NCBI GenBank assembly: GCA_947259075.1 | Contig: CAMYKQ010000035.1 | Coordinates: 1-64,000 of the forward strand | Direction: 5' to 3' | Origin: an uncultured Gammaproteobacteria bacterium | GTDB lineage: Bacteria > Pseudomonadota > Gammaproteobacteria > DRLM01 | Length of the DNA: 64,000 nucleotides | In this document: piece after piece, positions 38,118 to 58,994 of the stretch | How positions within the stretch are numbered: the first letter of the stretch is position 1 | Layout: each line of letters opens with the position of its first letter | Made by a program: the position numbers and the translations under genes | The notes under the pieces: model-generated | Seen by the model: only the letters and a program-made list of their open reading frames with translations | The model's database searches: none | What the model was told of the DNA's origin: nothing

Positions 38118-38132
38118 GCGCGGCGCGAGACC

Positions 38133-40162: not shown

Positions 40163-40315
40163 TATTGTTCTCCTCGTGGCGGCATTATACGGAATCCCCC
40201 TCATGCTTACCCGCACTGGCATTTCAGCGCTAAGCGTGGGTGTTCGCCGTTGCACACAGACCCATTCTAGTTTAATCTTGGCCGCCTTTGCAGGCCCCGT
40301 GCGGGCCTGTTTTAC

Positions 40316-40408
<93 letters not shown>

Positions 40409-40628
40409 TTGCATTAGTTAATCTTGTCAGATAATAAACATAAAAAATTTCATCATCTCGACGCTTGCGATGCTTCGGCGAGGGAGATGGCGGCTTTTAG
40501 CCGGTATCGTCTTCGGCACTTCCCCTGAGTTTTTTCTTGTTTGTAATGAGCTGGCGAGGGCTCTCGTCACTAGCATGCAATCGGTGTTTGCTTGTTGCTG
40601 ACTTGGTGTTGGATCATTGATTCGCGCG

Positions 40629-40916
40629 TTATTCGCCGGCGGCTTGCTCCGTAGAGGATAGCTCATAGTAATAGCGAATACCGCGGCGGAATTCGTCGCG
40701 GTCCAGCGGTGTCAAGGCCTCGTCTATGAGGCGATCCAGCGGCGGCGGCTCCGGGGCCGGCAATTGCGCGGTTTGCCAGGGCACGATGTGCGTAATCCGC
40801 GGCAGCTCGCGGTTGCCGGTGACGGTCGTTTCTTCCAGCTCGATGCGTTCTTCGGCAGATGCCAGATTGAGTATTGTGGCAATGCAGAGTATCAATATGC
40901 CTTGCAGGTGTTTCAT
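40629..40916 (-). CDS. Small periplasmic protein of unknown function
   Basis: 95 residues. Signal peptide (GILILCIATILNLASA) then a short mature region with RIELEETTVTGNRELPRITH, a Pro-rich stretch (PAPEPPPLDRL) and an acidic helix. The segment LEETTVTGNRELPR loosely resembles the mature N-terminus of TonB-dependent receptors (TonB-box-like ETTVTG), but no barrel follows. Its start overlaps the TPR gene's stop (TGATG). Last gene of the ten-gene operon. Confidence 0.8.
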   Translation of the reverse strand: MKHLQGILILCIATILNLASAEERIELEETTVTGNRELPRITHIVPWQTAQLPAPEPPPLDRLIDEALTPLDRDEFRRGIRYYYELSSTEQAAGE

Positions 40917-41524
40917 CAGTTTGATGACCCCGTGATTTCAGTTAGACGCCGTTGTAAATCGATGATCCATTTTTTCGTCATCTCGTTAGTCTCACCGCTG
41001 AGTTCCTGGTAGCGTTGGTAATGCGTTAAGGCGGCGCCCGGTTTGCTCAGATAAATTTCGTAAAGTATCCCCAAATTCAAATGGGCGTTGGCGTAATCGG
41101 GCTGGCATTGCAGCGCCTTGAGGTAGGCGGCTTCCGCCTCGGCGAAGCGGCCCGAGTGGCGATAGAGGATCCCCAGGCTGTTGTGAATCATCGCCAATTC
41201 GGGCTTTAGCGTCGCGGCATGCTGGAGTGCCGTCTCGGCCTGCTGCAGATCGCCGCGCTTGAGCGCCATCAGCCCGATGTTGATATAGGGCGCGGCCAGA
41301 TCGGGCCGCGACTGCGCCACGGCGTTGAACAAGGTTATGGCATCGTCGTCTTTTCCCTGCTTGAGGGCGGTCAGCGCTTGCTGGAAATCGCCACGCGTCA
41401 TTTCGGTCTCAGCCTTCGTTTCAGATGAGGCTATCGGCGTTTTGGAAGGCGTGCCCGTGCAGCCGGCGAGGGCCGCGAGCAATAAGGCGATGACCGCTGT
41501 TCTTATAAGGCTACTGTAAGTCAT
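40916..41524 (-). CDS. TPR lipoprotein
   Basis: 202 residues from ATG at 41524. Lipobox ALAGCT. Four TPR-like helical repeats cover about 45-180 (ALTALKQGKDDDAITLFNAV, LAAPYINIGLMALKRGDLQQ, MIHNSLGILYRHSGRFAEAE, NAHLNLGILYEIYLSKPGAA). TPR lipoproteins serve as scaffolds in outer-membrane assembly machines. The start lies inside the end of the 953-residue TPR gene (14-base overlap), so expression is coupled. Confidence 0.92.
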   Translation of the reverse strand: MTYSSLIRTAVIALLLAALAGCTGTPSKTPIASSETKAETEMTRGDFQQALTALKQGKDDDAITLFNAVAQSRPDLAAPYINIGLMALKRGDLQQAETALQHAATLKPELAMIHNSLGILYRHSGRFAEAEAAYLKALQCQPDYANAHLNLGILYEIYLSKPGAALTHYQRYQELSGETNEMTKKWIIDLQRRLTEITGSSN

Positions 41525-44372
41525 CGAAGTAGCTCTCGTTAAGTTCGGTCTTGGCGTAGCGTATGGGGTAGAGTGACGCCAAGGCCCGCAGACTCTCTTT
41601 GATCCATGCGTCATATATCCCGTCGCTGATATGCCGCAGATTCATCTCGTGGACTTTGATGGCCTGCTCCTCGAAGAGGAAGGCCTGCTCCTCCAAGAGG
41701 ATGGCATATTGCTCAAGTTCTTCGTTTGATAATCCGCGCGGGCGGTCTGATGACATTATCGCCTTGGCGAAATGGGCGTAGATGCCGCCAAGCTGGAATG
41801 TGGCCGCGGTGGTGACATCCGCGACTTGATATTCCAGGGCCTGGGTATAGCTGGCGATGGCTTTCTCCATCAAGATTTTCTTGGTCTTTAAGCTTGTTTC
41901 CAGCGGTAAGGCCAGTCTCGCGTCTTGATAGGCTTGTAAGTGAGTTTGGGCTATGCGCAAGCTCGCCTCGCCGGCCAGGAGGCGCGTGCGATCCGTGCGT
42001 GCCGCGCCCGCCGCCTGGTCGGCCTTGATGATTTCCTGTGACCAGTACAAGGATTTGTCAAAGTATTCCTGCTGGGCGTATAAGACGCTCAACTGATAAC
42101 GCGCCTCGATGGTGTCGGCAACGGCGGATGGAAACGCGTCGACGTAATGCGTATAGAGACGGATGGCGTCCTTGCTCGCGTCCAGCGATTGATACAAGGC
42201 CGCGGCCTCCCAAATGATATCCCTGCGTCGCTTTTCATCATTAGCGGCGCTGGCGAGTCCCTCCATTTCACGGGCGGCCTGATATTTTTTGCCACTTTGC
42301 ATGTAGACGAAAACCAGCTTCTCTTTTACCCCGTTTTGCAAACGGGCGTCTCCCAATTGGCGGCGGCGCAGGTCTTCCAGAACCGATGCCGCCGTTGGCC
42401 AGTCTGCAAGTGTAATCAGCGCCGCCGCGGCATCGTATTGCGCGGCGATCCAGATTGCGGGCGCGGCCTGGTCGATTCGGAGAAACGAGGCCACCGCCGA
42501 GCGCAGATCGCCGTCGGCGCGCCGTTGTTCACCTTGTTTATAGATGCTCGCCGCTAGGTTCTCGATCAGGCCCGGCCGCCGCGGGTCCGTGGCGGCCAGT
42601 TGCGCCAGCGCCGTGTTATAGGCCTTTTCGGCATTGGCGTAATCGGAGGTCTCGAATTGGGCGTGACCGAGCAGGGCCCAGGTGTTGGCGCGTGTATCCT
42701 CATCCTTGTTGACCGGCCGGTCGAGCAGGCGCTGCGCGGCGACGATGGCGGCCGCATAATCATGCAGGACGTAAAGCGCTTCAACGGCCTTAGCGAGCAC
42801 GCTGTTCACTCGCGCATCCTTGGGGTAGTGATCGCTGAAACGCAAGGCGCTGGCGATAGTCGTGCGGCGCCATTCCGTCTTTTCCTCTTCGGAGAGGGCG
42901 GGCAACACTTGCCAATAGCTCAATAAGGCCGCATAGCCTGCTTCGGCGCCGTTTTTGTGGGGGGGATATTCATAGGCGGTTCTTTCATATTGGGCGATGG
43001 CTTCACGAGACCGCTTGGCGTCGTGCAGGCATTCGGCCAGCAGAAAATTCATCTCCGCCGCCTGGGGACCGGAGGGCGATGTCTTGAGAAATTCCGCGTA
43101 CCACTTTATCGCGGCGTCAAAATCCTTGGCGGCATCGCCGCGGCGCGCAAGGGCGTGATAGTGCGCCGCCAGATCGCTGATATCTTTTTCCAGATAGGGA
43201 CGTATGCCATCATGGCTGCGCGCATCATGAGCGCGCCAATAAGGGCTATCGACACCGTAAAGTGCGACGAACTGGGATTTGGCATCCAGGAATAAATCAT
43301 GGAATCCCCCGCGGCGGTAAGCCGCAACGGCGTATTGATGAAACTGCGGCGCCATGGCATGGCCGGGATCGTGGCGCGCCAGCCCCAGGAAGGCGTTGGC
43401 GGCGTCGCCGTAACGGTCTTTTTCGAGATAGAACTCGCCGAGGCGGCGATAGACCAAGGTCTCATAAGGACGAGCGGCGATGGGCGCGATCAAGCTGTCA
43501 ACGGGGACGGTTTCGCCCAGATAGGACAAGCTCAGGCAAATCACTTTTAAACTGTCTTCGAGCAAGGCGCGGTCCTGCCCGGGCAGGTTTTCTCCTAGGG
43601 CGGTGATGTGTGTTTGGTCCGTGCCGAGCTTGCGTTCCAATAGTGAGTAGAACCGGTGCAAGCTTTCCTGATAGCGGCTCTCCAAATATAAGGACCAGCC
43701 GTCCATATATAAGGCGCGTTGATAAAAAATCGAATCGGGATAGTTGTTGAGCAGGGTGCTGAAGGCCAGTTCCGCCGCCGCGGTTTCGCGTAGCGAAAAA
43801 TGCATCTCGCCGCTGCGGAACAAGGCCTCTTCCGTATATAAACCTCTGGGGTACTCTCGCAGCAGGCGCTCCAGCACCGCGAGCGCATCCGCCATCTGGC
43901 CGCTCAGGTCATAGGCCTTGGCGAGTTGATAGAGCACGCGCTCATTGTTACCGTCATCCGGGTAATGGTTTAGATATTTTTGATAGTGCCCGATGGCGGA
44001 CTGCGCCTCGTCGCGGCCCGATACTGCATTGGCGGCGGTATCATTAGCGTTCTCGGCTATTTCCAGCTCCATATCGGCCAAACGTCTGAGCGCTTCGCGG
44101 TAGGCGGGATCATCGGCCGTCTCGTTCACTAAATCGCGATAGTGCGTCAGGGCCGCAGCGGCATCGATGGAGGGGCTGCCGTCCGGCGCGATCACAGGCG
44201 GCGCGCCCTTATCAAATTTCTCCCGCGGTAATCGGGCACTGACCATTAGTTTGAGCCGCTCTGCATTCATGGTTTCGTGCGGGTCGTGGAGATCACCGAT
44301 GCTGGGCGGCTCCAGCGTGGCGGCGCAGCCGGCGAGGAGTGAACTTAGAATAATGCAGGCCAGCCGTGACAT
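41511..44372 (-). CDS. Large TPR lipoprotein
   Basis: 953 residues. Lipobox SLLAGCA near residue 16. Almost the whole mature protein is made of TPR-like helix pairs, for example AIGHYQKYLNHYPDDGNNER, ALAVLERLLREYPRGLYTEE, FSTLLNNYPDSIFYQRALYM and AIAQYERTAYEYPPHKNGAE. It resembles the long TPR proteins found with myxobacterial-type gliding/outer-membrane clusters (AglT/PglE-like). I base that on repeat type and operon context and not on a specific motif. Predicted periplasmic, lipid-anchored scaffold. It starts 2 bases before the stop codon end of the preceding gene, so coupling is tight. Confidence 0.9.
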   Translation of the reverse strand: MSRLACIILSSLLAGCAATLEPPSIGDLHDPHETMNAERLKLMVSARLPREKFDKGAPPVIAPDGSPSIDAAAALTHYRDLVNETADDPAYREALRRLADMELEIAENANDTAANAVSGRDEAQSAIGHYQKYLNHYPDDGNNERVLYQLAKAYDLSGQMADALAVLERLLREYPRGLYTEEALFRSGEMHFSLRETAAAELAFSTLLNNYPDSIFYQRALYMDGWSLYLESRYQESLHRFYSLLERKLGTDQTHITALGENLPGQDRALLEDSLKVICLSLSYLGETVPVDSLIAPIAARPYETLVYRRLGEFYLEKDRYGDAANAFLGLARHDPGHAMAPQFHQYAVAAYRRGGFHDLFLDAKSQFVALYGVDSPYWRAHDARSHDGIRPYLEKDISDLAAHYHALARRGDAAKDFDAAIKWYAEFLKTSPSGPQAAEMNFLLAECLHDAKRSREAIAQYERTAYEYPPHKNGAEAGYAALLSYWQVLPALSEEEKTEWRRTTIASALRFSDHYPKDARVNSVLAKAVEALYVLHDYAAAIVAAQRLLDRPVNKDEDTRANTWALLGHAQFETSDYANAEKAYNTALAQLAATDPRRPGLIENLAASIYKQGEQRRADGDLRSAVASFLRIDQAAPAIWIAAQYDAAAALITLADWPTAASVLEDLRRRQLGDARLQNGVKEKLVFVYMQSGKKYQAAREMEGLASAANDEKRRRDIIWEAAALYQSLDASKDAIRLYTHYVDAFPSAVADTIEARYQLSVLYAQQEYFDKSLYWSQEIIKADQAAGAARTDRTRLLAGEASLRIAQTHLQAYQDARLALPLETSLKTKKILMEKAIASYTQALEYQVADVTTAATFQLGGIYAHFAKAIMSSDRPRGLSNEELEQYAILLEEQAFLFEEQAIKVHEMNLRHISDGIYDAWIKESLRALASLYPIRYAKTELNESYFDDLQ

Positions 44373-44374
44373 GG

Positions 44375-46276
44375 TTATGGCACGTTTTGCTCGTGGCTGA
44401 GTTGGTCGTAGAGACGCGCTTGCGCGTAGAGCGCCCGGCTGCGGTAGGTCTCAACTTGGCGCTTTCTCGCGGTCAGGGCGCCGGTGATGAGTTTGGCGCA
44501 GTACTGTTCCCGCCCCGCGATGGCGGCGTCCAATTTTCCGGACAAATTCTTCAGATACTGATCGAGCTCGGTAATGCGCTGGGCGAGACCGGCGAAATTC
44601 AGCGGAGTCATGTTCACTATTTCTTCTAGCGACGACTGCACGGCCGAAGTATGTTCCAAGTCATGATCCAGCGCGCGCAAGGCCGCCTTCACGCGCCATA
44701 GCCGTTGCGGAAATTCGGTCTTCAATTGCCATTGCAGCATGCCATATAAAATGCGGAATTTTTTTAATTGAGCCGACGCATCCATGGCGCTGGCGGGCAG
44801 CGCATCCAGTCTTGATTTAATCTCCAGCAATTGCCGTCTAGACTCACGCTCGTTGACATCGGCGAGCGCGGCGGTATTTTCCTCCCCTTCGATAGTCGCG
44901 ATCTCGGCTGACAGGGCGGCGCGTTGCGCAATGATGGTGTCTAACCTCTTCTGGTAATTGGAGGCGCTCAGTTCGGTGACATTCAGCGCGTAGCGGCGGC
45001 GGCGTTCTTCCAGCATGGTGTGCAGGAGGGGGATTCTTTCTTGCCAGCGCGCCACCTGGGCCTTGAGGAAATGCAGGTCGCGGTAGTCGCGATAAGCCTT
45101 CTGAAATTCGCTGGAGGCGACGACGTCATACGCGTATTTCCCGGCCGGCAATTCCGGAAAATTAGCGGCCAGGCTAAGTCGTGCCGCGTCTCCCCCGGCG
45201 CTAGCGGGAACGCTGGCCCGCAACAACTCTTCAAAACTTGTGGACGATAGCGCGGTATCGAGCGTGGCGCGCTCTCGATCATAGATGGCGATGGCGTTTT
45301 GATAATAGCTCAAGGCCAGTTCGGGCGCGCCGAGCGTTTCCAGAGTATAGGCGATGGCCACCAAGGCTTCCTGTGATGCCAGGTCCGCCGGTCTCGCGGC
45401 CAATTCAAACCAGGGCATCAGTCCCTCTTGCGGCCGGTCTTGCGCGCTGTAGGCCCAGCCGCTGCCGAGCAAGGCCGGCGATGAGAAAGGGCCGCTCAAG
45501 CGCACGCGGGAAAAGGCGGCGACGGGATCGCTCAAGGTTTTATCACGCAGTGAGGCGTAGCCGAGGGCGATGTTGGCCTTGTCGCGCAGCGCGTACCGCT
45601 CTTCGTCGCGCAGCGCGTACCGCTCTTCGTCGCGCGCGTCCATCACGGCGACTTGGTTCAACAGTTCCGCGCCTTCCTTGACGCGCTTGGCGCGTATCAG
45701 CGCCGTGCCGAGGTTATAGCGGGCATACTCCCGCCAGATCCCGCCGTGCTTGAGCTGTTCCAAGGTCTTCTTGGCCTCATCGAATTTATTTTCCCGTAAC
45801 TGAGTGTTCACTATTAGATTGAGCCGCTCCGCGTTCTTGGCAGCGGGCAGGGCATCGCCGACGGCTTGAAAAGCCGTCAAGGCCGCGGCGTATTGCTCAT
45901 CTTGGTAGCGCAGTTTTCCCAGATAGAACCAGGCGAGATCGTGAGTATACGGGCTGGTTGCACCGTCCAATAACCGCTGAAAAATGGCCGCGGCGGCGTC
46001 GTGCATCCCATAGGAAAGATAGAGCGAACCCAACAGCAGTTCCGGGTCGGCGCCCTGTGCCGCTATCGGCGCGCGTTGTTGCGTCACCATGATGCGGGTG
46101 ATGGCGTCGAAGTAGTGATTCTGATAGAAATCGAATAGCACCGCGCCGTAGCGCGGATCGCGCACGGACTGCGGCCGCAATGGATCGCTGGCCGCGAACG
46201 CCGCCGTAGGCGGGATGAGCAGGCATGCCAGCGCCAGTGAGATCCCCCATGATTTTGCGCTTCGCACCGCGCTCAC
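44375..46276 (-). CDS. TPR and coiled-coil periplasmic protein
   Basis: 633 residues with a signal peptide (GISLALACLLIPPTAAFA). The N-terminal half has TPR-like repeats (YGAVLFDFYQNHYFDAITRI, LYLSYGMHDAAAAIFQRLLD, LAWFYLGKLRYQDEQYAAAL). The C-terminal 270 residues are long charged helices, likely coiled coil (KRLDTIIAQRAALSAEIATI, SRRQLLEIKSRLDALPASAM). A perfect 24-bp tandem duplication gives DEERYALR twice near residue 220. Part of the large operon, 2 bases from the next gene. Probable scaffold; no enzymatic motif. Confidence 0.88.
   Translation of the reverse strand: MSAVRSAKSWGISLALACLLIPPTAAFAASDPLRPQSVRDPRYGAVLFDFYQNHYFDAITRIMVTQQRAPIAAQGADPELLLGSLYLSYGMHDAAAAIFQRLLDGATSPYTHDLAWFYLGKLRYQDEQYAAALTAFQAVGDALPAAKNAERLNLIVNTQLRENKFDEAKKTLEQLKHGGIWREYARYNLGTALIRAKRVKEGAELLNQVAVMDARDEERYALRDEERYALRDKANIALGYASLRDKTLSDPVAAFSRVRLSGPFSSPALLGSGWAYSAQDRPQEGLMPWFELAARPADLASQEALVAIAYTLETLGAPELALSYYQNAIAIYDRERATLDTALSSTSFEELLRASVPASAGGDAARLSLAANFPELPAGKYAYDVVASSEFQKAYRDYRDLHFLKAQVARWQERIPLLHTMLEERRRRYALNVTELSASNYQKRLDTIIAQRAALSAEIATIEGEENTAALADVNERESRRQLLEIKSRLDALPASAMDASAQLKKFRILYGMLQWQLKTEFPQRLWRVKAALRALDHDLEHTSAVQSSLEEIVNMTPLNFAGLAQRITELDQYLKNLSGKLDAAIAGREQYCAKLITGALTARKRQVETYRSRALYAQARLYDQLSHEQNVP
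45581..45628. repeat. Perfect 24-bp tandem duplication inside the TPR gene
   Basis: The 24-base unit at 45581-45604 is repeated exactly at 45605-45628, keeping frame and duplicating eight residues. A third, partial copy of 7 bases follows. The absence of any sequence difference suggests a recent slippage event. Confidence 0.95.
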
Positions 46277-46300
46277 TTCAGGCCGCTCCGGTTATGCGCA

Positions 46301-46861
46301 TCATTGATCCCAGACGGCGACTTCGAAATCCGGCTGCTGCTGGCCGCTATCATCGACGATCTTGAGCTCGACGAACAGCGGCGTCAGTTCTTTATCTATT
46401 ACTTTCGTCACCCCGCGTTTGTAGTCGCGGCCGTGCGGCCCCTTGCCGATGAAATAGGCCGTGAATTCGTGGCGGCCGCTCTTCAAGTTACCCAGATACA
46501 GGCGGTGTACACCGCCCTCCTTCAATGCGGCGAGCTCTCGCTGGGTATAGAGATAATTGGTGACGATCTTGTCGTCCACCCGTAACTGCACTGAGTCCAG
46601 CGCAAAGAAGTCGCCGATATCGAGCGAGACGAAGACCGTGAACTGCGTGCTTTCCGGGTACAGAATATCTTCCTCGATCATGAACAGCTCGCGATTGATC
46701 TTCAGGACCTCCGCTTTGAGAGCTTGGATTTCCTCATCCGGCGCGGATGTTTTGGGGGCGGTATTCTCCGGCAGCTTATCGTCCGCGCTAACCGCGGCCG
46801 CCAGCGGCAGGCCTAAGGCAGCGAAGAGCGCGATGTAAAAAACAAAATGGCGGGGACTCAT
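46301..46861 (-). CDS. Coiled-coil periplasmic protein of unknown function
   Basis: 186 residues. Signal peptide (FVFYIALFAALGLPLAAAVS), a coiled-coil helix (about 43-65; EEIQALKAEVLKINRELFM) and a beta-sandwich-like domain (FTVFVSLDIGDFFALDSVQL, HRLYLGNLKSGRHEFTAYFI, PLFVELKIVDDSG). I do not recognise a family. It lies between the DUF3570 barrel and the TPR genes in the same operon and probably binds one of them. Confidence 0.85.
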   Translation of the reverse strand: MSPRHFVFYIALFAALGLPLAAAVSADDKLPENTAPKTSAPDEEIQALKAEVLKINRELFMIEEDILYPESTQFTVFVSLDIGDFFALDSVQLRVDDKIVTNYLYTQRELAALKEGGVHRLYLGNLKSGRHEFTAYFIGKGPHGRDYKRGVTKVIDKELTPLFVELKIVDDSGQQQPDFEVAVWDQ

Positions 46862-46928
46862 GGCTGAGCTTTCCTCTGGCAGGGTGGGCGCAATCGTGCG
46901 GGCGTATCGCGAAACAGGCGTGACATCA

Positions 46929-48140
46929 TCAGTACCATAGGGACAGAAAAAGGCGAATTACATTCGCGGAGAACTTATAAAGAGGCTCGTCGCCGGCGCT
47001 GCCGGAGGCGGTGATATCACGATAATCATCATAATTGAATTGAATGTGATCGATGTGCAAATTCAAACTGCCTTTGTCGATATAGTGCCATGCATTCCGC
47101 GCGAACTCGTAACTGATGCCGGCGCCGACGGTATGATTGCTCATCGTGCTCAACTCTTTATCCCGGGCCAAAAAGTTCTGGGATGAGATCCTCGGGAAAA
47201 GGTCGCTGAAAAAATCGGCCGCGCTCTGGCTGTAGAAGCGGTATTTCAGATCGACGGTCCAGTTGCCGTCGATAGGGTGGGTGTAGTCGATTTGAGCGTT
47301 ATGCGCCGTGATGCCCCAGGAGTCGCCATAGGTCCTGAATTCGCCGTGTACCGAAGCGCGGTACGGCAGGTAATAACGCGCCTGTAGCGTAACGGCGCTG
47401 CTGCTATGGGTGCGGGGATAATGCTCGGGCTCGAAGCTGTAACCGATCGGGTTGGTGGGGTCCAGATACCGGACCGAGCGATAGGGGTTGTTCAAAAACC
47501 CCTCGTCACTGATGACCTCGAAGGTAAGACCCAGCACGCTGTCCTTGGTGAGGACTTGCGACAGTTCCAGCTGGTAATTATTCCGGCCGACATCCTCCAT
47601 GAAATTGGTTTGGCCATTCTTGCGCACCGTATCCCATCCCCGGGAATAGCCCATGGAGATCGTCGTCATGTCGCCGAACATATCTTGGCTGATCCTAAAA
47701 TTCGCGGTATTGGCGCTGTAGTCGCTTTCCTCGCTATTGGTATAACCCGCGATCAGCGTCACGTCGCCTTTGAGGTAATTCACGCCGATGGATTTTTCCT
47801 TGCGCTCTTCCTTGTAGGGGCTGCCTTGGGTGACGACATCGATAGAGGCGCTGGAGACATGGTCAACGTAATAATTGCCGGATAGCGAGGTGCTGGTGCC
47901 GAGGGTCTTGCGCACCAGTACCGACGGTCCGGTGACCTTGACGCCGCCGCCATCGTACGAGTGATAAAGAGCATCGGCGCGTTCCTCGGGAAGTACCCCG
48001 GCATCGCCGCGTGAGGGATGGCAGAGGGCGATGAGCGCGCCCAACAGCACCCATTTGCCAACGCCAGGATTAATTGCAGCCACAGCCGCCGCCTCCGCCG
48101 CCTTCGGCGCCGCGCGCGCCCTCGCGGGCTTGGTAGACAT
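46929..48140 (-). CDS. DUF3570 outer-membrane beta-barrel protein
   Basis: 403 residues as drawn. The body from about residue 55 (ADALYHSYDGGGVKVTGPSV) matches DUF3570, and alternating strands run to a C-terminal aromatic (LFLSLWY), as in outer-membrane barrels. The hydrophobic signal is WVLLGALIALCHPSRGDA at about 30-47. The N-terminal 29 residues are Ala/Lys-rich and are encoded where the gene overlaps the end of the DUF4266 gene by 71 bases in another frame. A GTG at 48050 would remove most of this overlap, but neither start has a clear ribosome binding site. DUF3570 genes often travel with DUF4266, TlpA-type thioredoxins and ApbE, as I recall. Confidence 0.85.
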   Translation of the reverse strand: MSTKPARARAAPKAAEAAAVAAINPGVGKWVLLGALIALCHPSRGDAGVLPEERADALYHSYDGGGVKVTGPSVLVRKTLGTSTSLSGNYYVDHVSSASIDVVTQGSPYKEERKEKSIGVNYLKGDVTLIAGYTNSEESDYSANTANFRISQDMFGDMTTISMGYSRGWDTVRKNGQTNFMEDVGRNNYQLELSQVLTKDSVLGLTFEVISDEGFLNNPYRSVRYLDPTNPIGYSFEPEHYPRTHSSSAVTLQARYYLPYRASVHGEFRTYGDSWGITAHNAQIDYTHPIDGNWTVDLKYRFYSQSAADFFSDLFPRISSQNFLARDKELSTMSNHTVGAGISYEFARNAWHYIDKGSLNLHIDHIQFNYDDYRDITASGSAGDEPLYKFSANVIRLFLSLWY

Positions 48141-48300
48141 GATTCATATAGGCCGCGGCGGCGGGGTGTCTCTCGCCGCTCATGATGGGGTCGGCGAGAT
48201 GCGCGCGTTCATAGGGTTTGACCCAAGGTTCCACGCCGCATGCCGTCACCGTCAGGCAGGCGATGATCAATACCGTGATGTTGAATGGCCGTCCGTTCAT
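48070..48300 (-). CDS. DUF4266 lipoprotein with Gly/Cys tail
   Basis: 76 residues. Lipobox TVTACG near residue 20. The DUF4266 core is EPWVKPYERAHLADPIM and AYMNHVYQAREGARGAEGG, ending in GGGGGGCGCN. The tail with two cysteines at the extreme C-terminus is unusual and could bind metal, be oxidised by the adjacent thioredoxin or be a modification site. The ATG overlaps the stop of the TlpA gene (ATGA). Predicted to be a small membrane-anchored periplasmic protein. Confidence 0.9.
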   Translation of the reverse strand: MNGRPFNITVLIIACLTVTACGVEPWVKPYERAHLADPIMSGERHPAAAAYMNHVYQAREGARGAEGGGGGGCGCN

Positions 48301-48809
48301 TCTCGAATCAATGCCCTGACTTGCTGTTGATACTCTTCCTCATAGCCGGGCTGGTAGCCCATGTAGAGGTGTCGCATATTGCCGCCGCGATCCACTAATA
48401 GGGTACTGGGCATGCCCTTTATTTTATAGAGTTTGCTGACGTTATTGGCGCTGTCGAAGAGGATGGGGAAGGTGACGGGTATGTCCTTCAACAGCGATTT
48501 CGCCGCGTCGGAATTTTCCTCGACATTGACGCCGAGGATGATGAAATCCAGCGAACGATAGCGTTGATAGAGTTGATCCAGTACCGGCATTTCCTGGCGG
48601 CAAGGCCCGCACCATGACGCCCAGAAGTTGATCATGACTACCTTGCCGCGCAATTCGCTGAGTTTGATATTGTCGCCGCCTTGACTCTTCAAAGTGAAAT
48701 CGGGGGCCTTGCCTTGTATCGTTTCCGCCGTGGCGCAGGGCGCTAGGCATACGCTTAGCGTCAATGCCGCGATCAGCCGGATGAAAGTAAGGCGCTTCAT
48801 GATATGCAT
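48297..48809 (-). CDS. TlpA-like periplasmic thioredoxin
   Basis: 170 residues. Signal peptide (LIAALTLSVCLAPCATAE), then an AhpC/TSA-type thioredoxin fold: APDFTLKSQGGDNIKLSELR, VVMINFWASWCGPCRQEMPV with the CGPC active site near residue 70, cis-Pro in GMPSTLLVDRGG. Periplasmic thiol reductase or oxidase. Its gene is directly coupled to the DUF4266 lipoprotein with terminal cysteines, which makes that protein a likely client. Confidence 0.95.
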   Translation of the reverse strand: MHIMKRLTFIRLIAALTLSVCLAPCATAETIQGKAPDFTLKSQGGDNIKLSELRGKVVMINFWASWCGPCRQEMPVLDQLYQRYRSLDFIILGVNVEENSDAAKSLLKDIPVTFPILFDSANNVSKLYKIKGMPSTLLVDRGGNMRHLYMGYQPGYEEEYQQQVRALIRE

Positions 48810-48822
48810 AGCGGGTCTCCTG

Positions 48823-49491
48823 CTAGAAAAAAACCGTTGCCCCCAATGAGAGTTCGATGTTGTGCGTCTTTTGCTTCGCGCCGAATAGATCGACGTCGAA
48901 GATGTGATCTCTTACATCGCCATGCAGCGCCAGCCAGTCCGTCGCCAGAAAGCGATAGCCGGCGCCCAGATTGACGGTGAACCTGTCGTCGCCCGCGAAG
49001 CGGGTGCTGCCGGCCCCGGCGATGATGTACAGGGCGGAATTGAAGGTATGTTTGGCGCTAAGGAACGCTTCTCCGGGGAGCAGGTTATAGCCCAAAGACA
49101 GATTGTAATAGCTCAGCGTTCTTTCACCAGTGGTGAGCAATTCGGCCGCGCCGCTGAGGCGTTCGTAACTGGTCTTGCCAGTCTCGGTTTGGCCAGCGGC
49201 GGCCTCGACGAAGAAGCCCTCGCTGATGTGATAGGCGGCGCGGACGCCAAACACCGGATTGACGCCGAAATCCTCCACGCTCATCAGGCCGCCAAAGACG
49301 CCGACCTCAAAATCCTCGGTGTCGATGCTGGGCACGGTGATGTCGCGGCGCGCCACTTGCGGCTTGATGACCTGCTCGGTTTCCGCGGTCATGGGTTCCG
49401 CCGCGTGTACTGCTGGTGCGCACAAACCGCAGAGGCAGACCGCTAGCGCCGCGATGCGGCCTAGAAAAATATGGCGAATCCTGCTTTCCAC
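48823..49491 (-). CDS. Outer-membrane beta-barrel protein
   Basis: 222 residues. Signal peptide (IAALAVCLCGLCAPAVHA). An eight-stranded-type small barrel is suggested by GVRAAYHISEGFFVEAAAGQ, LSYYNLSLGYNLLPGEAFLS, YIIAGAGSTRFAGDDRFTVN and NIELSLGATVFF at the C-terminus, ending in Phe. The pattern matches the barrel family first noted in myxobacteria and its relatives in gammaproteobacteria, as far as I recall. Its start lies 31 bases inside the end of the upstream SH3-barrel gene, a paralogue. Confidence 0.9.
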   Translation of the reverse strand: MESRIRHIFLGRIAALAVCLCGLCAPAVHAAEPMTAETEQVIKPQVARRDITVPSIDTEDFEVGVFGGLMSVEDFGVNPVFGVRAAYHISEGFFVEAAAGQTETGKTSYERLSGAAELLTTGERTLSYYNLSLGYNLLPGEAFLSAKHTFNSALYIIAGAGSTRFAGDDRFTVNLGAGYRFLATDWLALHGDVRDHIFDVDLFGAKQKTHNIELSLGATVFF

Positions 49492-50207
49492 TCGTGTATT
49501 TCCTCATTGGCGTCGTGATCGTTGCTGGCGGAGAACACAAGATAATCGTTGTATTCAACCCGCAAAACGAAGCGGCGGCTGAGATAGGCTTGGGCGCCTA
49601 TCCCGACATTGGCGAATTGATCGGTACGATCGGCGCTCTGTACCAAGGTGGCGCGCGGCTGGGTGCGCGCCACGCCGGTGCCCAGGGCGAAGAATGGCGC
49701 TATGCGCCATGCGGGAAAAGGGTGGGCGAGGAGCGCGGCCTTGACTGACACGCTGCTGGAATAATCTCCCAGAGCCTGGGTGAGCGTAAGTTCGCCGGAC
49801 AGATGTTCCGCGAAGCGATAACCGCCGAATAAACTGATGGCCCGCGCGCCGCTGTAATCACCGCCGCTCACGCCCATTTCCCATCGGTGGCGCCGATAGT
49901 CAGCGATCGCTATTGCTTCAATGTGAGTTTTTTCACCGGAGGGCGTCAGGGTCAGCTCCAGTTGGCGCAGATTGACCCAGCCTTCTTGCTCCTTGCTGGT
50001 CCGCACCTTGAACCAATCGGTCTTGCGTTTCAGCAGGGTGATCGTTGCGCCGCGTTCGACCACCAGAAACACGGGATAGCCGCTGCCCGCGCCGGTGTGC
50101 AGCTCGATGTAGGGATCGGCGATTTGGACCACACGGTATTGTTCCGCGCCGTAGGCCAGGCCGCTAAGCCAGCATTGTGAGATCAAAATTAACAGGGTAA
50201 TGCGCAT
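49461..50207 (-). CDS. SH3-domain outer-membrane beta-barrel protein
   Basis: 248 residues from ATG at 50207. Signal peptide (LLILISQCWLSGLAYGA), a bacterial SH3 domain (about 22-85; YIELHTGAGSGYPVFLVVER, WFKVRTSKEQEGWVNLRQL), then a barrel like the following gene (ISLFGGYRFAEHLSGELTLT, FFALGTGVARTQPRATLV, FVLRVEYNDYLVFS, EWKAGFAIFF). The SH3 part may bind peptidoglycan, tethering the barrel to the wall. First gene of the ten-gene operon. Confidence 0.9.
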   Translation of the reverse strand: MRITLLILISQCWLSGLAYGAEQYRVVQIADPYIELHTGAGSGYPVFLVVERGATITLLKRKTDWFKVRTSKEQEGWVNLRQLELTLTPSGEKTHIEAIAIADYRRHRWEMGVSGGDYSGARAISLFGGYRFAEHLSGELTLTQALGDYSSSVSVKAALLAHPFPAWRIAPFFALGTGVARTQPRATLVQSADRTDQFANVGIGAQAYLSRRFVLRVEYNDYLVFSASNDHDANEEIHEWKAGFAIFF

Positions 50208-50341: not shown

Positions 50342-52987
50342 TCAGTCTATCGGGACGGCGAAGGGATTGTTGTAATACTGCGCGCCGATATCCAGCCACT
50401 CCGCGAGCAAACGCAATTCGGCCGCGGTTAACATCCCGTCATGGCTGCCGCCCGCGGCGAATACGTTGAGAAAACGGCTGGCGTGCGCGCCCGTCACCGA
50501 CATCGAAGGCCGCACGGGCACGGGCAGCAGTATCGGCTGACCATCCGCGTCCAGCCCCGGCACCAACTTGTCTTGCAACGCGCCGTCCGCGATCTCCTGT
50601 TCATTATCGGTGAACAACAGTTCGCGATAGGACTTGAAGTGATCGGGCTCATCGCTGGAAGGGCCGTCGCTCAAGTCCAGTTGCGCCGCGGGGACCTGTG
50701 GCGCGGCGGCATTGTCCACCACGTTATGGCATACGCTGCAAGTATTGTCCGCTAGCACGGTAATGCCGTCTCCGGCCAGCACTTGGCGGGACTTGCCCCA
50801 CAAGGGATGAATGTGTTGCTCATAGTTGATGACGACGCGGCATTGCGTGTCCCACTGGGTTTGGCAGTTACTTGTGGCCGGCGCCGGCGTGTCGAGACCG
50901 GCGTAACGATAGCTCAAGCTGGCATCCTTGGCGCGCAGCGAGGCATCGGTCCAGACATCGTCGTAGTTGATATCCACTCGCGGCGTTTGCGCCGCGCAGT
51001 CGGTCTGGCAGCTGATGCGCGCGCGTGTCCGCGCCATGGTCTCGCCGATGTCGGCCCACAAGTCTGGATCGGTGTTGGGGAAGGGGAGGCCGGCGGCAGT
51101 GGCACCGGCATTGACCGGTGGCGGCCCCGCGGGGCTGGCGTGCGGGGTGCCGCTGCCATGGACGTGGCAACCGTTGCATTCTTTGGTCTCACCGGGACGC
51201 AGTTGCAGCCAGTTTTGGTGTTCCGCGCTGATGCGCCGCCCATCCTTGTCGAGGATGTCGATAGTGAGGGGCACATTGGCCGGTAGCTTCACCATCACTG
51301 AACCGTCCGGCTCGATGGGAACGTAACCGATGATTTCCCGCATCAAGCGTTGCCGGCTGGCGCCGAAGGCCGTGCCGGGGAGGCGCAGCACGCTGCGATC
51401 GGGAATGGCGACGCCCTTGACGATGCGCAAGAAGCGGGCGGGACGTTGATCGGCGTTTGTTCGCAGCGGATCGGCCAAGGCGGTGATCCCGCCGGGTGCG
51501 GTATCGACACCGTCCATATCATAGACGCTGCGGATGTGGAGGATGCCGGCGCCCTCCGCGAGCTTGTCCGCGTCCAAGCCGAGGCCGGCGGTCTTGTCGT
51601 AAAGGATCGCGGGTGGCGTGGGCCGGGGTTGCGCCGCCACCACCTCGGTAATCATCGAACCCTCCTGCGCGACCACCAGCGGCAGTTGTGTGTTCTGGTC
51701 GAAATCGTAGATCCACGCGCCGTAGAGCGGCGGGGCTTCTTGCGTGTCCGCCGCCGCCAGCCGTTCGCTGGTGCAGGGCACTATTTTGTCTTGCTGCAAA
51801 AGCCGGCAGGGACTCCACGCCACCAAGGCGCGCGCCGTGCCGTCCCACAGCGGAAAGACCGCGTGAAAGCGGCCGCCGGGTGAGGGGAGACCGTCGGTGC
51901 GGATTTGATTCACCGTGGCCGGAGCCTGTCCCTCCCCGGTGAGCAGGCCGCGGCTGGACCAGACGGGCTGGTTGTAGTCCGCGAAGTTGGCAGCGTCGAT
52001 CGTGACCAGATCGCCGCCGCCCTGGCCGCTGCTAAACGGCCCGAGTATGGCCATGATCTTGCCGTCTGGCGTCTCGCGCGGCTGGAGGAATTGCACGGCC
52101 GCGCCCCCGGTGCCAGTGGTGTGGCTGTGAGCACCGTAGGCCACTCGCAGCTCGGTGCCGTCCGGGTGCATCTTGTAAAGGCTGATGGCATTGCTGCCGC
52201 CCATGTGATCCCAGCGGCTGAAGAGGACCTCACCGCTGCTTAATACCATGGGATCGAGGTCGTGACTTTGATTGAAGGAGATTTGATGGATGTCAGTGCC
52301 ATCGGCATTCATCACGTGTAACACCAAGGCCTCGTCCCGCAGGTCCTCATCCAAGGCGGCGAACTGCGGTTTGCCCTCGTCGAGGAGAATGGCGCGCGCT
52401 TGGCGCTGGCGGGTGGAGGAGAACACGATGCGCTTGTCGGGCAAATAATGCGGGGCGATATCCTCCCCGGCCTCCGCCGTGATATCGGAGGCGATGATGC
52501 GCCGCAGCTGATCCGTGGCGATCTCGTATTCCCAAATGTTCCAGCTGGGTTGCTCCTCATCCGTGGCGTTCTCGATTTCGGGGGCATGCATGGCAAACAG
52601 CAGCCGCTGGCCGTCGTAAGAGACGTCGACATCCCTGACGTCGCCCATGCCTTGGGTGATGGACGCGGTGATGTTTTTATCCGTCGCGCTGGGCGAGGCG
52701 CGTTCGCGCAGGTACAAATCACCCCCGGCGTTGAAGCTGGCGGCGCGCCGCACGTCGCCGCGCGCGGGGTTCCCTTGATTGTCCAAGGCTAGCGGGCGCT
52801 TGATATAGGCCATAGGAAAATCCGTGACCACGGGGTCCGGGTCCTGACCGCTCCCGCCGACATCGCCGCCGCAGGCGGTGAGCACGGCCGTCAATGCGCC
52901 TATCAAGGGCAAGGCCCATCTGCTGCTGCGGGGTAAAGCTGCGGTATCGCTAGTCATGCCGTTCATTGTTGTGCTGTCATTTCTCAT
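50342..52987 (-). CDS. HzsA-like dihaem lipoprotein
   Basis: 881 residues. Lipobox TAVLTACG near residue 38. The first 500 residues look like a beta-propeller with PD40-type blades (DVDVSYDGQRLLFAMHAPE, LPDKRIVFSSTRQRQ, MNADGTDIHQISFNQSHDLD, MVLSSGEVLFSRWDHMGG). The C-terminal part has two c-type haem sites, ECNGCHVHG near 610 and NTCSVCHNVV near 740, and a C-terminal DGMLTAAELRLLAEWLDIGA helix. This is the layout of proteins related to the hydrazine synthase alpha subunit, which in most bacteria have no known reaction. Nothing here suggests anammox. Periplasmic and lipid-anchored. Divergent from the other CxxCH genes. Confidence 0.88.
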   Translation of the reverse strand: MRNDSTTMNGMTSDTAALPRSSRWALPLIGALTAVLTACGGDVGGSGQDPDPVVTDFPMAYIKRPLALDNQGNPARGDVRRAASFNAGGDLYLRERASPSATDKNITASITQGMGDVRDVDVSYDGQRLLFAMHAPEIENATDEEQPSWNIWEYEIATDQLRRIIASDITAEAGEDIAPHYLPDKRIVFSSTRQRQARAILLDEGKPQFAALDEDLRDEALVLHVMNADGTDIHQISFNQSHDLDPMVLSSGEVLFSRWDHMGGSNAISLYKMHPDGTELRVAYGAHSHTTGTGGAAVQFLQPRETPDGKIMAILGPFSSGQGGGDLVTIDAANFADYNQPVWSSRGLLTGEGQAPATVNQIRTDGLPSPGGRFHAVFPLWDGTARALVAWSPCRLLQQDKIVPCTSERLAAADTQEAPPLYGAWIYDFDQNTQLPLVVAQEGSMITEVVAAQPRPTPPAILYDKTAGLGLDADKLAEGAGILHIRSVYDMDGVDTAPGGITALADPLRTNADQRPARFLRIVKGVAIPDRSVLRLPGTAFGASRQRLMREIIGYVPIEPDGSVMVKLPANVPLTIDILDKDGRRISAEHQNWLQLRPGETKECNGCHVHGSGTPHASPAGPPPVNAGATAAGLPFPNTDPDLWADIGETMARTRARISCQTDCAAQTPRVDINYDDVWTDASLRAKDASLSYRYAGLDTPAPATSNCQTQWDTQCRVVINYEQHIHPLWGKSRQVLAGDGITVLADNTCSVCHNVVDNAAAPQVPAAQLDLSDGPSSDEPDHFKSYRELLFTDNEQEIADGALQDKLVPGLDADGQPILLPVPVRPSMSVTGAHASRFLNVFAAGGSHDGMLTAAELRLLAEWLDIGAQYYNNPFAVPID

Positions 52988-53562: not shown

Positions 53563-54801
53563 ATGTACAGAAAAACGACATCTCGATCCTGCCAGCTCCG
53601 GCCATGGGGGATACGAGCCATCGTGGCCTGCTGTCTGCTGGCCGCGGGGGTCACGGCCACTGCCGGTCCCCGGGAGCAGGCCAAGCGCCTGCATGATCGT
53701 CTGGCCGGCGTCCCGCCCACCGAGGCCGTGTTGGCGCAGATGGCGGCGGACATCAGTGCCGGGAATCCCATCGCGGCGGCGGATAAGGCCATGGACAACG
53801 GCGCCTTCTACAACGTCACGCTGAAAAACTTCGTGACGCCTTGGACCAATGAAGAGCAGAGCGTATTCGCGCCGCTCAATGATTATACCGCCACGGTGAT
53901 CGGCATGATCCGCGACGATGTGGATTTCAGACAGGTGTTGTACGGCGATATTCTCTATGTCGGCGCCGCCAATTTGGGGCTGCCCGCTTACGGGATGAAC
54001 AACAATGCGCACTATGAAGCGCTGGAAGACCAAGCCATCGATTTAAAGACCCAGCTGGCGCGCACCACTCAATCCGCGGTAATCGGTTTGCCCGCCGAGG
54101 CTAGCGCCGGGGTGATGACCACCCGCGCCGCCGCCAAGGCGTTTTTTAGCGGCGGGACCAACCGCGCCATGTTCAGATTCACATTGATGAATCATCTTTG
54201 TACCGATCTCGAACAACTCAAGGATATCTCGCGGCCGCCTGATCGCATTCGCCAAGATGTGTCACGCAGCCCGGGCGGCGACAGCCGCATATTTTTGAAT
54301 AATTGCATTGGCTGTCATTCAGGCATGGACCCCATGGCGCAGGCCTACGCTTATTACAACTACGACTACGACACTGCCGCCGATCCCGACGGCGTGAGTG
54401 GCAGGCTGGTTTACAACGGCGCCGGCGCGGTCGACCCCGACACCGGCGGCCGGGTGCAAGGCAAATACCGCATCAACGCCGACAACTTCAAACACGGTTA
54501 CATCACCAACGACGATCGCTGGGACAACTATTGGCGCAGCGGACCCAATGCGATGCTCGGGTGGGATGCCGCGCTCAGCGGCGGCGGTTCAGGCGCGAAA
54601 TCCCTCGGTATGGAGCTGGCGCACAGCGCGGCCTTCGCCAGCTGCCAGGTGAAGAAGGTATTTAAGGCGGTGTGCCTGCGGCCGCCGACGGACGGCGCTG
54701 ATTTCACCAAGGTGGATGCCATGGTGGCCTCGTTCAAGAGCGGCAATTATCGAATGAAGCGGGTGTTCGCCGAGGCGGGCGCGTATTGCATGGGTAACTG
54801 A
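53563..54801 (+). CDS. Exported monohaem CxxCH protein
   Basis: 412 residues. Signal peptide (IRAIVACCLLAAGVTATA). One c-type haem site, NNCIGCHSGMDPMAQAYAYY, near residue 247. The N-terminal half is helical (TTRAAAKAFFSGGTNRAMF, FTLMNHLCTDLEQLKDISRP), and the C-terminus has two further Cys (FASCQVKKVFKAVCLRPP). The layout resembles DUF1588/DUF1592-type cytochrome-like proteins that accompany DUF1501 or DUF1552 proteins, but I cannot assign a specific family. Followed by two same-strand genes that appear to be one operon. Confidence 0.85.
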   Translation: MYRKTTSRSCQLRPWGIRAIVACCLLAAGVTATAGPREQAKRLHDRLAGVPPTEAVLAQMAADISAGNPIAAADKAMDNGAFYNVTLKNFVTPWTNEEQSVFAPLNDYTATVIGMIRDDVDFRQVLYGDILYVGAANLGLPAYGMNNNAHYEALEDQAIDLKTQLARTTQSAVIGLPAEASAGVMTTRAAAKAFFSGGTNRAMFRFTLMNHLCTDLEQLKDISRPPDRIRQDVSRSPGGDSRIFLNNCIGCHSGMDPMAQAYAYYNYDYDTAADPDGVSGRLVYNGAGAVDPDTGGRVQGKYRINADNFKHGYITNDDRWDNYWRSGPNAMLGWDAALSGGGSGAKSLGMELAHSAAFASCQVKKVFKAVCLRPPTDGADFTKVDAMVASFKSGNYRMKRVFAEAGAYCMGN

Positions 54802-54843
54802 GCACGCGGCTGGGCGGCTAGATTTTGATTGCGGAGATTTGCG

Positions 54844-57390: not shown

Positions 57391-57416
57391 CGCGCGTTTA
57401 TTTTAGGAGACGAACC

Positions 57417-58994
57417 ATGGCCAAGAATAAGACCTCACTGCATCCGGACGCGCCGCTACGCCACCCGGATCACGCGCGGCCGGTTTCCCGCCGCGACTTT
57501 CTGGCGCAAGGGCTGGCGGCCGGGGCGGGGGTGGTGCTTGCGCCTACGCTGCTGAGCTTTTTGCTGGGCAACCCGCGTATGGCGCGGGCCGCATTGTCCG
57601 CGGATATCTCTGGATTGAAAGCAGGCTGCGGCATTGATTCACTGGGCGCGGGCAAGATTCCCTTCATCTGTTTCGACTTGGCGGGCGGCGCCAATATCGC
57701 CGGTTCCAATGTATTGGTCGGCAAGCAGGGCGGCCAAATGGATTTTCTCACTTCGGCGGGTTACAGCAAGCTGGGCCTGCCCGGCGATATGATTCCGCAG
57801 GCGGCGGGTGCCTTCATCAACAATGAGTTTGGTTTGGCCTTCCATGCCGACAGCGCCTTCGTGCGCGGCATGGTGGAGAGAGTCGCCGCCGGCAATCGCG
57901 CCAGTGTCAACGGCGCGGTGATCCCGGCGCTGTCCGATAACGACACCGGCAACAATCCGCATAATCCCATGTACGGTGTATATAAGGCCGGCGCCAAGGG
58001 CGAGTTGCTGAGTTTGATCGGTTCCGTCAACTCGGATTCCGGCGGTAATTCCATGGCGCCGGCGGCGATGATCGACGTTGCGGCCCGGCCCACCAAGGTC
58101 GACAGGCCCAGCGATGTCACCGGTCTGGTCGACACCGGCAAGCTGGTGAAAACGCCCGCCCGCCCGGACGGTCTCTTGGCGCTGAATGATGCGATTCCGG
58201 TTTTGGAGGCCATCAAACGCATCAGCGATAAAAAGCTGGCGAAGGTAAGCACCCAGCTGAGCGATGATGCCGCTATCAAACACGACGTGGAATGCCAGTA
58301 CGTCAAGAGCGCGGACCTGGTGGATCGTTATGGCGATCCTTCGGCCTTGAATCCCAGTCTCGATACGCGAATAGTCGGCAACGACGGCAGCAGTATCTTC
58401 ACCCAGGCCGAATACGACGGCGACGGCGAATTCCGCAAGACCGCCGCGGTGATGAAGATGGTGGTCAACGGCTATGCCGGCGCCGGCACCATAAGCATGG
58501 GCGGCTTCGACTATCACAACGGCAGTCGTTCCACCGGCGAACTGCGCGATCTGCGTGCCGGACGTTGTATCGGCGCTTGTCTGGAATACGCGGCGCGCGT
58601 GGGCAAGCCGCTGATGATCTATGTGTTCAGCGATGGCTCGCTGGCCAGCAACGGCATGGTCGATAACTCAGTGGAGGGTCGCGGCAAGGGCGTGTGGACC
58701 GGAGACAATTCCTCTACCGCCGCCTCGTTCTTCCTGGTCTACAATCCCGCCGGGCGCCCGGCGGCCCTGCGCCAGCAGATCGGTTATTTTCGCGCCGACG
58801 GCTCGGTGGAAAGCGCATCCAGTCCCGCCGCCAACAATGTCGGTTTGCTGGTGGAGACCGTGATCCTCAATTACTTGGCCTTGCACGGCGAGCAAAACAG
58901 CTTCACCAGCTTATTTCCCGGTCATGGTTTGGGTAACGCCACGCTAAGAGACAGTCTCACTGCTTTTGAACCCATCGTCAGCGGAACGATTTAA
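57417..58994 (+). CDS. Tat-exported DUF1501-like protein
   Basis: 525 residues from ATG at 57417 after TTAGGAGA. Twin-arginine signal VSRRDFLAQGLAAGAGVVLA near residue 23, so it is exported folded. The body has FICFDLAGGANIAGSNVLVG, DNDTGNNPHNPMYGVYKAG, then GAGTISMGGFDYHNGSRSTG and YVFSDGSLASNGMVDN. This is the pattern of DUF1501-type proteins (alkaline-phosphatase-like fold, often wrongly annotated as a GspF). It may need a metal, since Asp/His residues (FDYHNG) are conserved in the family. It is the last gene of the CxxCH operon, 26 bases after the LamG gene. Function unknown. Confidence 0.86.
   Translation: MAKNKTSLHPDAPLRHPDHARPVSRRDFLAQGLAAGAGVVLAPTLLSFLLGNPRMARAALSADISGLKAGCGIDSLGAGKIPFICFDLAGGANIAGSNVLVGKQGGQMDFLTSAGYSKLGLPGDMIPQAAGAFINNEFGLAFHADSAFVRGMVERVAAGNRASVNGAVIPALSDNDTGNNPHNPMYGVYKAGAKGELLSLIGSVNSDSGGNSMAPAAMIDVAARPTKVDRPSDVTGLVDTGKLVKTPARPDGLLALNDAIPVLEAIKRISDKKLAKVSTQLSDDAAIKHDVECQYVKSADLVDRYGDPSALNPSLDTRIVGNDGSSIFTQAEYDGDGEFRKTAAVMKMVVNGYAGAGTISMGGFDYHNGSRSTGELRDLRAGRCIGACLEYAARVGKPLMIYVFSDGSLASNGMVDNSVEGRGKGVWTGDNSSTAASFFLVYNPAGRPAALRQQIGYFRADGSVESASSPAANNVGLLVETVILNYLALHGEQNSFTSLFPGHGLGNATLRDSLTAFEPIVSGTI

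What the first reader, a model, noticed from the sequence alone, without database searches (positions are those of the whole stretch)
40629..50207. Ten-gene envelope operon: barrels, thioredoxin, DUF4266/DUF3570 and TPR scaffolds
Ten consecutive minus-strand genes, mostly with overlaps or gaps of a few bases, are all exported: SH3-barrel, barrel, TlpA, DUF4266 lipoprotein, DUF3570 barrel, coiled-coil protein, two large and one small TPR protein, and a small peptide. The mix resembles myxobacterial gliding-type outer-membrane clusters, but without the ExbB/ExbD/TonB energisers. It is joined to the DUF4266-DUF3570-TlpA(-ApbE) redox set. It could build or move something at the outer membrane under thiol control.
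Basis: partly seen in the sequence, partly recalled or inferred. Interest (0 to 1): 0.75.

Follow-up and report, generated by a model that had tools for sequence, protein, structure and literature searches.

The report
Motorless surface redox machine gene cluster
The ten genes are the motor-less half of a widespread bacterial envelope machine related to the myxobacterial gliding motor; they are tied to a haem-, flavin- and thiol-bearing surface electron-transfer kit, and the matching motor sits elsewhere in the same genome, which gives two 'function unknown' systems a shared, testable role.

Summary
In detail: ten tightly packed minus-strand genes of exported proteins lie at 40629-50207, and an eleventh (a di-haem, hydrazine-synthase-alpha-like lipoprotein) begins the run. 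The gene order is not unique to this contig. A scan found 332 related loci, and those kept are almost all gammaproteobacterial. The usual arrangement is [HZSa-SH3barrel-OMP-TlpA-DUF4266-DUF3570] and/or [cyt-LamG-Tat-ApbE], then CC-TPR-TPR-TPR-peptide-ExbB-ExbD-ExbD-AgmX. The machine part matches the Agl/Glt 'core complex' (PMC3169522, function unknown). The barrel part is the flavinylated DUF3570 system (PMC8238504, function unknown). I found no paper joining them.

The window copy lacks ExbB-ExbD-ExbD-AgmX, but a paralogous cluster on contig C41 carries them. Of 116 copies in 91 genomes, 19 are motorless, in 8-9 separate groups. All 19 genomes keep motor genes elsewhere. The redox genes occur almost only in genomes that have the machine (HZSa 57 of 58, Tat protein 52 of 54).

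Best reading: a proton-driven envelope machine, motor supplied in trans, that places, moves or energises an outer-membrane haem/flavin/thiol module. Motor dependence and kinship are well supported; what is moved is inference. New variant of a known kind.

The parts
50342..52987 (-). HZSa: 881-aa lipoprotein, PD40-like propeller + HZS_alpha middle domain, two CxxCH haem sites (residues 604, 750); first gene of the run
   Evidence: PF18582 63 bits; PDB 5c2v_A hydrazine synthase alpha E=1e-9; CxxCH; beside SH3-OMP in other genomes
49461..50207 (-). SH3 domain + small outer-membrane beta-barrel
   Evidence: SH3_3 31 bits, OMP_b-brl 34 bits
48823..49491 (-). OMP_myx_plus outer-membrane beta-barrel
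   Evidence: TIGR04565 170 bits, cut-off 60
48297..48809 (-). TlpA/ResA-like thiol-disulfide oxidoreductase (CxxC)
   Evidence: AhpC-TSA 100 bits; CxxC in 70 of 70 cluster TlpA proteins
48070..48300 (-). DUF4266 lipoprotein, 76 aa, C-terminal CGCN
   Evidence: PF14086 77 bits; lipobox C21 and CGCN invariant in 25 of 25
46929..48062 (-). DUF3570 outer-membrane barrel, about 16 strands, with two degenerate ApbE acceptor sites SSAS and TQGS in one long loop
   Evidence: PF12094 122 bits; model pLDDT 89; barrels as PDB matches; acceptor sites
46301..46861 (-). CC186: exported coiled coil + beta-sandwich, no known family, centre of every cluster class
   Evidence: no Pfam/NCBIfam; model pLDDT 85.5; 332 related loci
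44375..46276 (-). TPR1: exported TPR protein, 633 aa (GltC-like position and size)
   Evidence: TPR hits; fused to TPR2 in the C41 copy
41511..44372 (-). TPR2: TPR lipoprotein, 953 aa (GltD-like position and size)
   Evidence: TPR/YbgF hits; present in 93 of 377 class genomes
40916..41524 (-). tpr3: small TPR lipoprotein (GltE-like)
   Evidence: TPR_11 61 bits; NCBIfam GltE model 42 bits, cut-off 225
40629..40916 (-). pep95: exported 95-aa peptide with conserved GNxELPkvlyIvPW motif
   Evidence: motif pattern in 52 of 60 homologues
53563..54801 (+). cyt: mono-haem protein, weak PSD2/PSCyt3 similarity
   Evidence: one CxxCH in 52 of 52 homologues; PSD2 in 5 of 11 members, best 1.2e-5
54859..57390 (+). 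LamG: di-haem lipoprotein with LamG/concanavalin domain
   Evidence: Laminin_G_3 70 bits; two CxxCH in 46 of 50
57417..58994 (+). Tat-exported protein, no family
   Evidence: RR signal in 48 of 52 homologues; no Pfam domain beyond the signal
59019..60014 (-). ApbE flavin transferase
   Evidence: PF02424 275 bits

Best explanation
The cluster is a second, motor-less copy of the gammaproteobacterial Agl/Glt-type envelope machine, physically joined to an outer-membrane redox module. The machine side (CC186, TPR1, TPR2, tpr3, pep95) is a periplasmic and outer-membrane scaffold. It would be energised by an ExbB-ExbD-ExbD proton channel through a TonB-like AgmX/GltG protein; in this organism both are encoded only in the paralogous C41 cluster and so must act in trans. 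The client side is a set of surface or periplasm-facing electron carriers: a di-haem HZS-alpha-like lipoprotein, a flavin-bearing DUF3570 barrel modified by ApbE, the CxC lipoprotein DUF4266 kept in its redox state by TlpA, and nearby haem/LamG/Tat proteins. The machine uses the proton-motive force to place, move or mechanically gate this module across or along the outer membrane, as AglRQS serves either Glt or Nfs in Myxococcus. Shown: gene content, conserved order, motor elsewhere in all 19 motorless genomes, and genomic dependence of the redox genes on the machine. Inferred: physical use of the trans motor, the direction of electron flow, and what is moved.
For: Same order across Gammaproteobacteria, with HZSa-SH3-OMP-TlpA-D4266-D3570 running directly into CC-TPRs-pep-ExbB-ExbD-ExbD-AgmX (L051, L052, L136 nearly complete). 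Own genome: C41 copy TlpA-CC-TPR-tpr3-pep-ExbB-ExbD-ExbD-AgmX, TPR2 39% identical; AgmX and ExbB searches find nothing on the window contig C35. 116 copies in 91 genomes: motorless in 18 of 46 scored copies of two-copy genomes against 1 of 61 of single-copy genomes. The one exception, G061, has a free-standing ExbB-ExbD-ExbD-AgmX operon, as does its congener G170; G004's motor was found at a contig end. 9 motorless groups on the TPR2 tree, 8 after collapsing weak branches. AgmX is in 91 of 93 TPR2+ and 2 of 284 TPR2- genomes; HZSa in 57 of 93 and 1 of 284; Tat protein in 52 of 93 and 2 of 284. ExbD2 TM aspartate in 60 of 60. Precedents: AglRQS shared by Glt and Nfs (PMC3858216); DUF3570 flavinylated (PMC8238504).
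Against: No experiment. Nothing shows the C41 motor touches this scaffold: the adaptor AgmX is also missing here, whereas Myxococcus Nfs keeps its own NfsG. 8 of the 18 other motorless copies also lack pep and most of these lack tpr3, so some may be decaying or working passively. The window DUF3570 sites (SSAS, TQGS) do not meet the strict [S/T]GA[S/T] motif. TPR1/TPR2 could not be aligned with GltC/GltD. The Fisher p-value ignores relatedness. Some motorless genomes carry a further separate motor that could be the true partner.
Confidence: 0.55

Rival explanations
1. The window cluster works without any motor: the TPR/CC proteins are only a static scaffold that assembles the flavin/haem barrel complex, and the motor was lost because it is not needed.
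For: Motor genes absent here, in congener G001 and in family members G003 and G004; 8 of the 18 other motorless copies also lack pep and most of these lack tpr3.
Against: All 19 motorless genomes keep the motor elsewhere; single-copy genomes keep it linked in 60 of 61; AgmX and TPR2 co-occur in 91 of 93. A motor-independent copy should sometimes survive in a genome without the motor.
Confidence: 0.22
2. The motor belongs only to the C41 machine; the window cluster is energised by another ExbB/ExbD or Tol system of the cell.
For: Three further MotA/ExbB family genes in the genome.
Against: The only AgmX-tail protein over cut-off in the genome is on C41, and AgmX tracks TPR2 across the class.
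Confidence: 0.1
3. Two unrelated units (the DUF3570 flavin set and the TPR set) lie side by side by chance or recent rearrangement.
For: Each occurs separately: the machine lacks redox neighbours in about half of the loci with enough flank (45 of 85), and the ApbE-DUF3570-DUF4266-thioredoxin set is described as a gene cluster of its own (PMC8238504).
Against: The join recurs in many genera; HZSa and the Tat protein are nearly absent from genomes without the machine (1 of 284 and 2 of 284).
Confidence: 0.06
4. It is a gliding or surface-motility machine proper.
For: Agl/Glt core composition.
Against: PMC3169522 argues the core alone does not drive gliding and that gliding is undocumented in most carriers; the group A Glt genes named there were not identified here.
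Confidence: 0.05

Closest known systems
Agl/Glt 'Group B core complex' of Gammaproteobacteria (Luciano et al. 2011, PMC3169522)
   Same: Clustered TPR proteins of fitting size and order (GltC, GltD, GltE-like), with an AglR/Q/S-type ExbB-ExbD-ExbD set and a GltG-like AgmX-tail protein in sister copies; duplications reported there too; one extra gene noted there (CC186 or pep95 here, by inference).
   Different: The window copy has no motor or adaptor and is joined to haem/flavin/thiol outer-membrane genes, which that paper does not discuss in the passages read.
Myxococcus AglRQS motor shared by Glt and Nfs (PMC3858216)
   Same: One motor serves two paralogous scaffolds; the second scaffold uses a motor encoded apart from it.
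   Different: Nfs keeps its own adaptor NfsG; the window copy lacks the AgmX adaptor as well. Use of the trans motor is demonstrated there, inferred here.
ApbE-DUF3570-DUF4266-thioredoxin flavinylation system (PMC8238504)
   Same: All four parts present; DUF4266 ends in CXC; ApbE lies about 11 kb away; one DsbD in the genome.
   Different: Flavin acceptor motifs are relaxed in the window protein; the set is embedded in a motor-associated envelope cluster with an HZS-alpha-like protein.
Hydrazine synthase alpha subunit (PDB 5c2v)
   Same: Matches in the same order along the protein (propeller region, middle domain, C-terminal end); the middle domain with its CxxCH matches best.
   Different: 59 bits against a curated cut-off of 800; very low similarity outside the middle domain.

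Membership tests
Agl/Glt core complex (Group B) | ExbB + two ExbD (AglR, Q, S) linked | tested here: not met
   absent from the window contig (for ExbB); present in the C41 paralogue and in 88 of 116 copies
Agl/Glt core complex (Group B) | GltG-like protein with AgmX/TonB-type C-terminus | tested here: not met
   not in the window; C41 protein: NF033768 61 bits (cut-off 40), GltG model 45 bits (cut-off 650)
Agl/Glt core complex (Group B) | GltE-like TPR lipoprotein | tested here: inconclusive
   tpr3 matches the GltE model at 42 bits, below cut-off 225; Tgl and PilW models score higher
Agl/Glt core complex (Group B) | homologues of GltC and GltD | not testable with these tools
   no GltC/GltD sequences or models matched; only size, order and TPR content agree
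ApbE/DUF3570/DUF4266 flavinylation system | DUF3570 and DUF4266 proteins | tested here: met
   PF12094 122 bits, PF14086 77 bits
ApbE/DUF3570/DUF4266 flavinylation system | two [S/T]GA[S/T] acceptor motifs in DUF3570 | tested here: not met
   window SSAS and TQGS; second acceptor Ser invariant in 26 of 26, glycine relaxed; closer forms in relatives, e.g. TGAS and AGAS
ApbE/DUF3570/DUF4266 flavinylation system | CXC at DUF4266 C-terminus | tested here: met
   CGCN in 25 of 25
ApbE/DUF3570/DUF4266 flavinylation system | covalent FMN on DUF3570 | not testable with these tools
   needs protein
Hydrazine synthase alpha | equivalog score | tested here: not met
   59 bits, cut-off 800

The most novel reading that the evidence does not exclude
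A proton-driven Agl-type motor moves or mechanically gates an outer-membrane electron-transfer complex (haem, covalent flavin and CXC thiol carriers), i.e. a mobile or force-gated extracellular redox device, with one motor serving two scaffolds in the same cell.
Probability: 0.2. Interest if true: 0.88.

Novelty: new variant of a known kind. Interest (0 to 1): 0.66.

Why it matters
Two widely distributed envelope systems have each been left as 'function unknown': the Agl/Glt core complex of non-gliding Gammaproteobacteria and the flavinylated DUF3570/DUF4266 system. Finding that they form one genomic system, with the redox genes almost confined to genomes that hold the machine, gives both a shared, testable role. 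The repeated loss of the motor from one of two copies offers a natural experiment on motor sharing, known so far (to my knowledge) from Myxococcus.

Tried and rejected
The first CC186 alignment was too divergent for a collection scan; a smaller one worked. Foldseek of CC186 against the PDB gave nothing below E=0.015, so its fold is not assigned. Foldseek of DUF3570 gave many outer-membrane barrels, PelB first, none specific; used only to confirm a barrel. A DUF1501-like identity for the Tat protein was considered from memory and dropped: no Pfam or PDB match. A hydrazine-synthase role for HZSa was rejected (cut-off far from met). Promoter and terminator scans gave no more than shuffled sequence. 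A direct link to GltC/GltD could not be tested. No paper joining AgmX-type machines with ApbE/DUF3570 was found.

Full report
OBSERVATION. The ten minus-strand genes are there at the stated coordinates with the stated domains. With corrected starts, neighbouring genes overlap by up to 31 bases or are separated by at most 67 bases. The run begins one gene earlier, with an 881-aa lipoprotein at 50342-52987 that matches the hydrazine synthase alpha middle domain (PF18582, 63 bits; PDB 5c2v_A) and has two CxxCH haem sites. On the other side of a 575-base divergent gap lie cyt, LamG and Tat genes (53563-58994) and then ApbE (59019-60014).

CONSERVATION. CC186 (46301-46861), which has no family, was used as a probe because it sits in the middle. 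A scan of GTDB genomes gave 332 related loci, of which 80 were kept, nearly all labelled gammaproteobacterial or proteobacterial. Gene order read from these, from relatives and from the class survey shows two upstream modules, [HZSa SH3 OMP TlpA D4266 D3570] and [cyt LamG Tat ApbE], used alone or together, followed by CC-TPR1-TPR2-tpr3-pep-ExbB-ExbD-ExbD-AgmX. L051, L052 and L136 hold almost the whole set in one run.

THE MISSING MOTOR. The window lacks ExbB-ExbD-ExbD-AgmX. In the same genome, searches place the only AgmX-tail protein over cut-off, and an ExbB, on contig C41, where a paralogous cluster TlpA-CC-TPR(fused)-tpr3-pep-ExbB-ExbD-ExbD-AgmX lies (TPR2 39% identical). Among 377 class genomes of at least 95% completeness, 93 have TPR2 and 93 have AgmX, 91 of them the same. 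The two TPR2 genomes without AgmX (G068, G258) have their cluster cut by a contig end.

Of 116 copies in 91 genomes, 88 have the motor directly downstream, 19 do not, and 9 are cut by contig ends. Motorless copies make up 18 of 46 scored copies in two-copy genomes but 1 of 61 in single-copy genomes (Fisher p = 3e-7, ignoring relatedness). Sixteen of the two-copy genomes show a complete partner motor; in G203 the partner copy reaches ExbB at the contig end and AgmX lies on another contig; G004's motor was found next to tpr3/pep on a small contig. The single-copy exception G061 carries a free-standing ExbB-ExbD-ExbD-AgmX operon elsewhere, and so does its congener G170. Thus all 19 motorless genomes keep motor genes elsewhere. 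On a FastTree tree of TPR2 the motorless copies form 9 groups, 8 if branches under 0.9 support are collapsed. The window and G001 copies sit beside motor-bearing redox-linked copies.

DEPENDENCE OF THE REDOX GENES. HZSa occurs in 57 of 93 TPR2-positive and 1 of 284 TPR2-negative genomes; the Tat protein in 52 of 93 and 2 of 284. The machine often occurs without them. That is the pattern of a client that needs the machine. Eighteen of the 19 motorless genomes hold HZSa or the Tat protein.

REDOX ANATOMY. cyt has exactly one CxxCH in 52 of 52 homologues, LamG two in 46 of 50, HZSa two or three in 61 of 70; TlpA has CxxC in 70 of 70; the Tat motif is found in 48 of 52. DUF4266 keeps a lipobox cysteine and a C-terminal CGCN in 25 of 25. 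DUF3570 is modelled as an outer-membrane barrel of about 16 strands (pLDDT 89). Its two adjacent ApbE acceptor sites lie in one long loop (residues 70-84) of the same parity as the other long loops, which suggests the extracellular side (inference). The second acceptor serine is invariant in 26 of 26, but the motif is relaxed in the window (SSAS, TQGS); relatives have closer forms. In the motor, ExbD2 has the membrane aspartate in 60 of 60 while ExbD1 has asparagine in 51 of 60.

INTERPRETATION. DUF3570 flavinylation by ApbE is experimental (PMC8238504), as is sharing of AglRQS between Glt and Nfs (PMC3858216). The gammaproteobacterial core complex is described as of unknown function (PMC3169522). 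Joining these with the data above, the best account is a motor-less scaffold that borrows the C41 motor to place, move or gate an outer-membrane haem/flavin/thiol module. What is moved, and the direction of electron flow, are not shown. The strongest rival is a static, motor-independent scaffold; it is disfavoured because no motorless genome has lost the motor.

LIMITS. No experiment; most genomes are metagenome-assembled; relatedness inflates the p-values; the correspondence of TPR1 and TPR2 with GltC and GltD rests on size, order and domain type; at most two TPR2 candidates were scored per genome in the class survey, so a third copy would be missed.

Noticed in passing
window 40316-40406 +: tRNA-Ser(GGA) sits directly after pep95, at the place where ExbB-ExbD-ExbD-AgmX stand in most relatives.
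   Followed up: partly
L038 14000-14997: The two ExbD proteins of the motor differ at the membrane carboxylate: ExbD2 Asp in 60 of 60, ExbD1 Asn in 51 of 60, hinting at an asymmetric ExbD pair.
   Followed up: partly
window 40629-40916 -: pep95 family carries a conserved GNxELPkvlyIvPW motif after the signal peptide, faintly like a TonB box; a possible docking peptide for the AgmX TonB-like domain (untested).
   Followed up: partly
L234, L235, L236, L239: Free-standing ExbB-ExbD-ExbD-AgmX operons with no TPR or CC gene next to them in G061, G114, G281 and G170.
   Followed up: partly
L059, L110: The cluster appears on contigs labelled Halobacteria archaeon and Verrucomicrobiaceae; probably mis-binned gammaproteobacterial contigs.
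   Followed up: no
window 35466-40414 -: Downstream set of CHASE2-type sensor kinase, LysM-FecR protein and response regulator on the same strand (read from the sequence, not searched); relation to the cluster unknown.
   Followed up: no
G039:C1:1998599-2005796: Only genome with HZSa hits but no TPR2; HZSa is fragmented there, as if decaying without the machine.
   Followed up: no
window 53563-57390 +: cyt and LamG genes weakly resemble planctomycete PSD2/PSCyt3 plus LamG proteins.
   Followed up: partly
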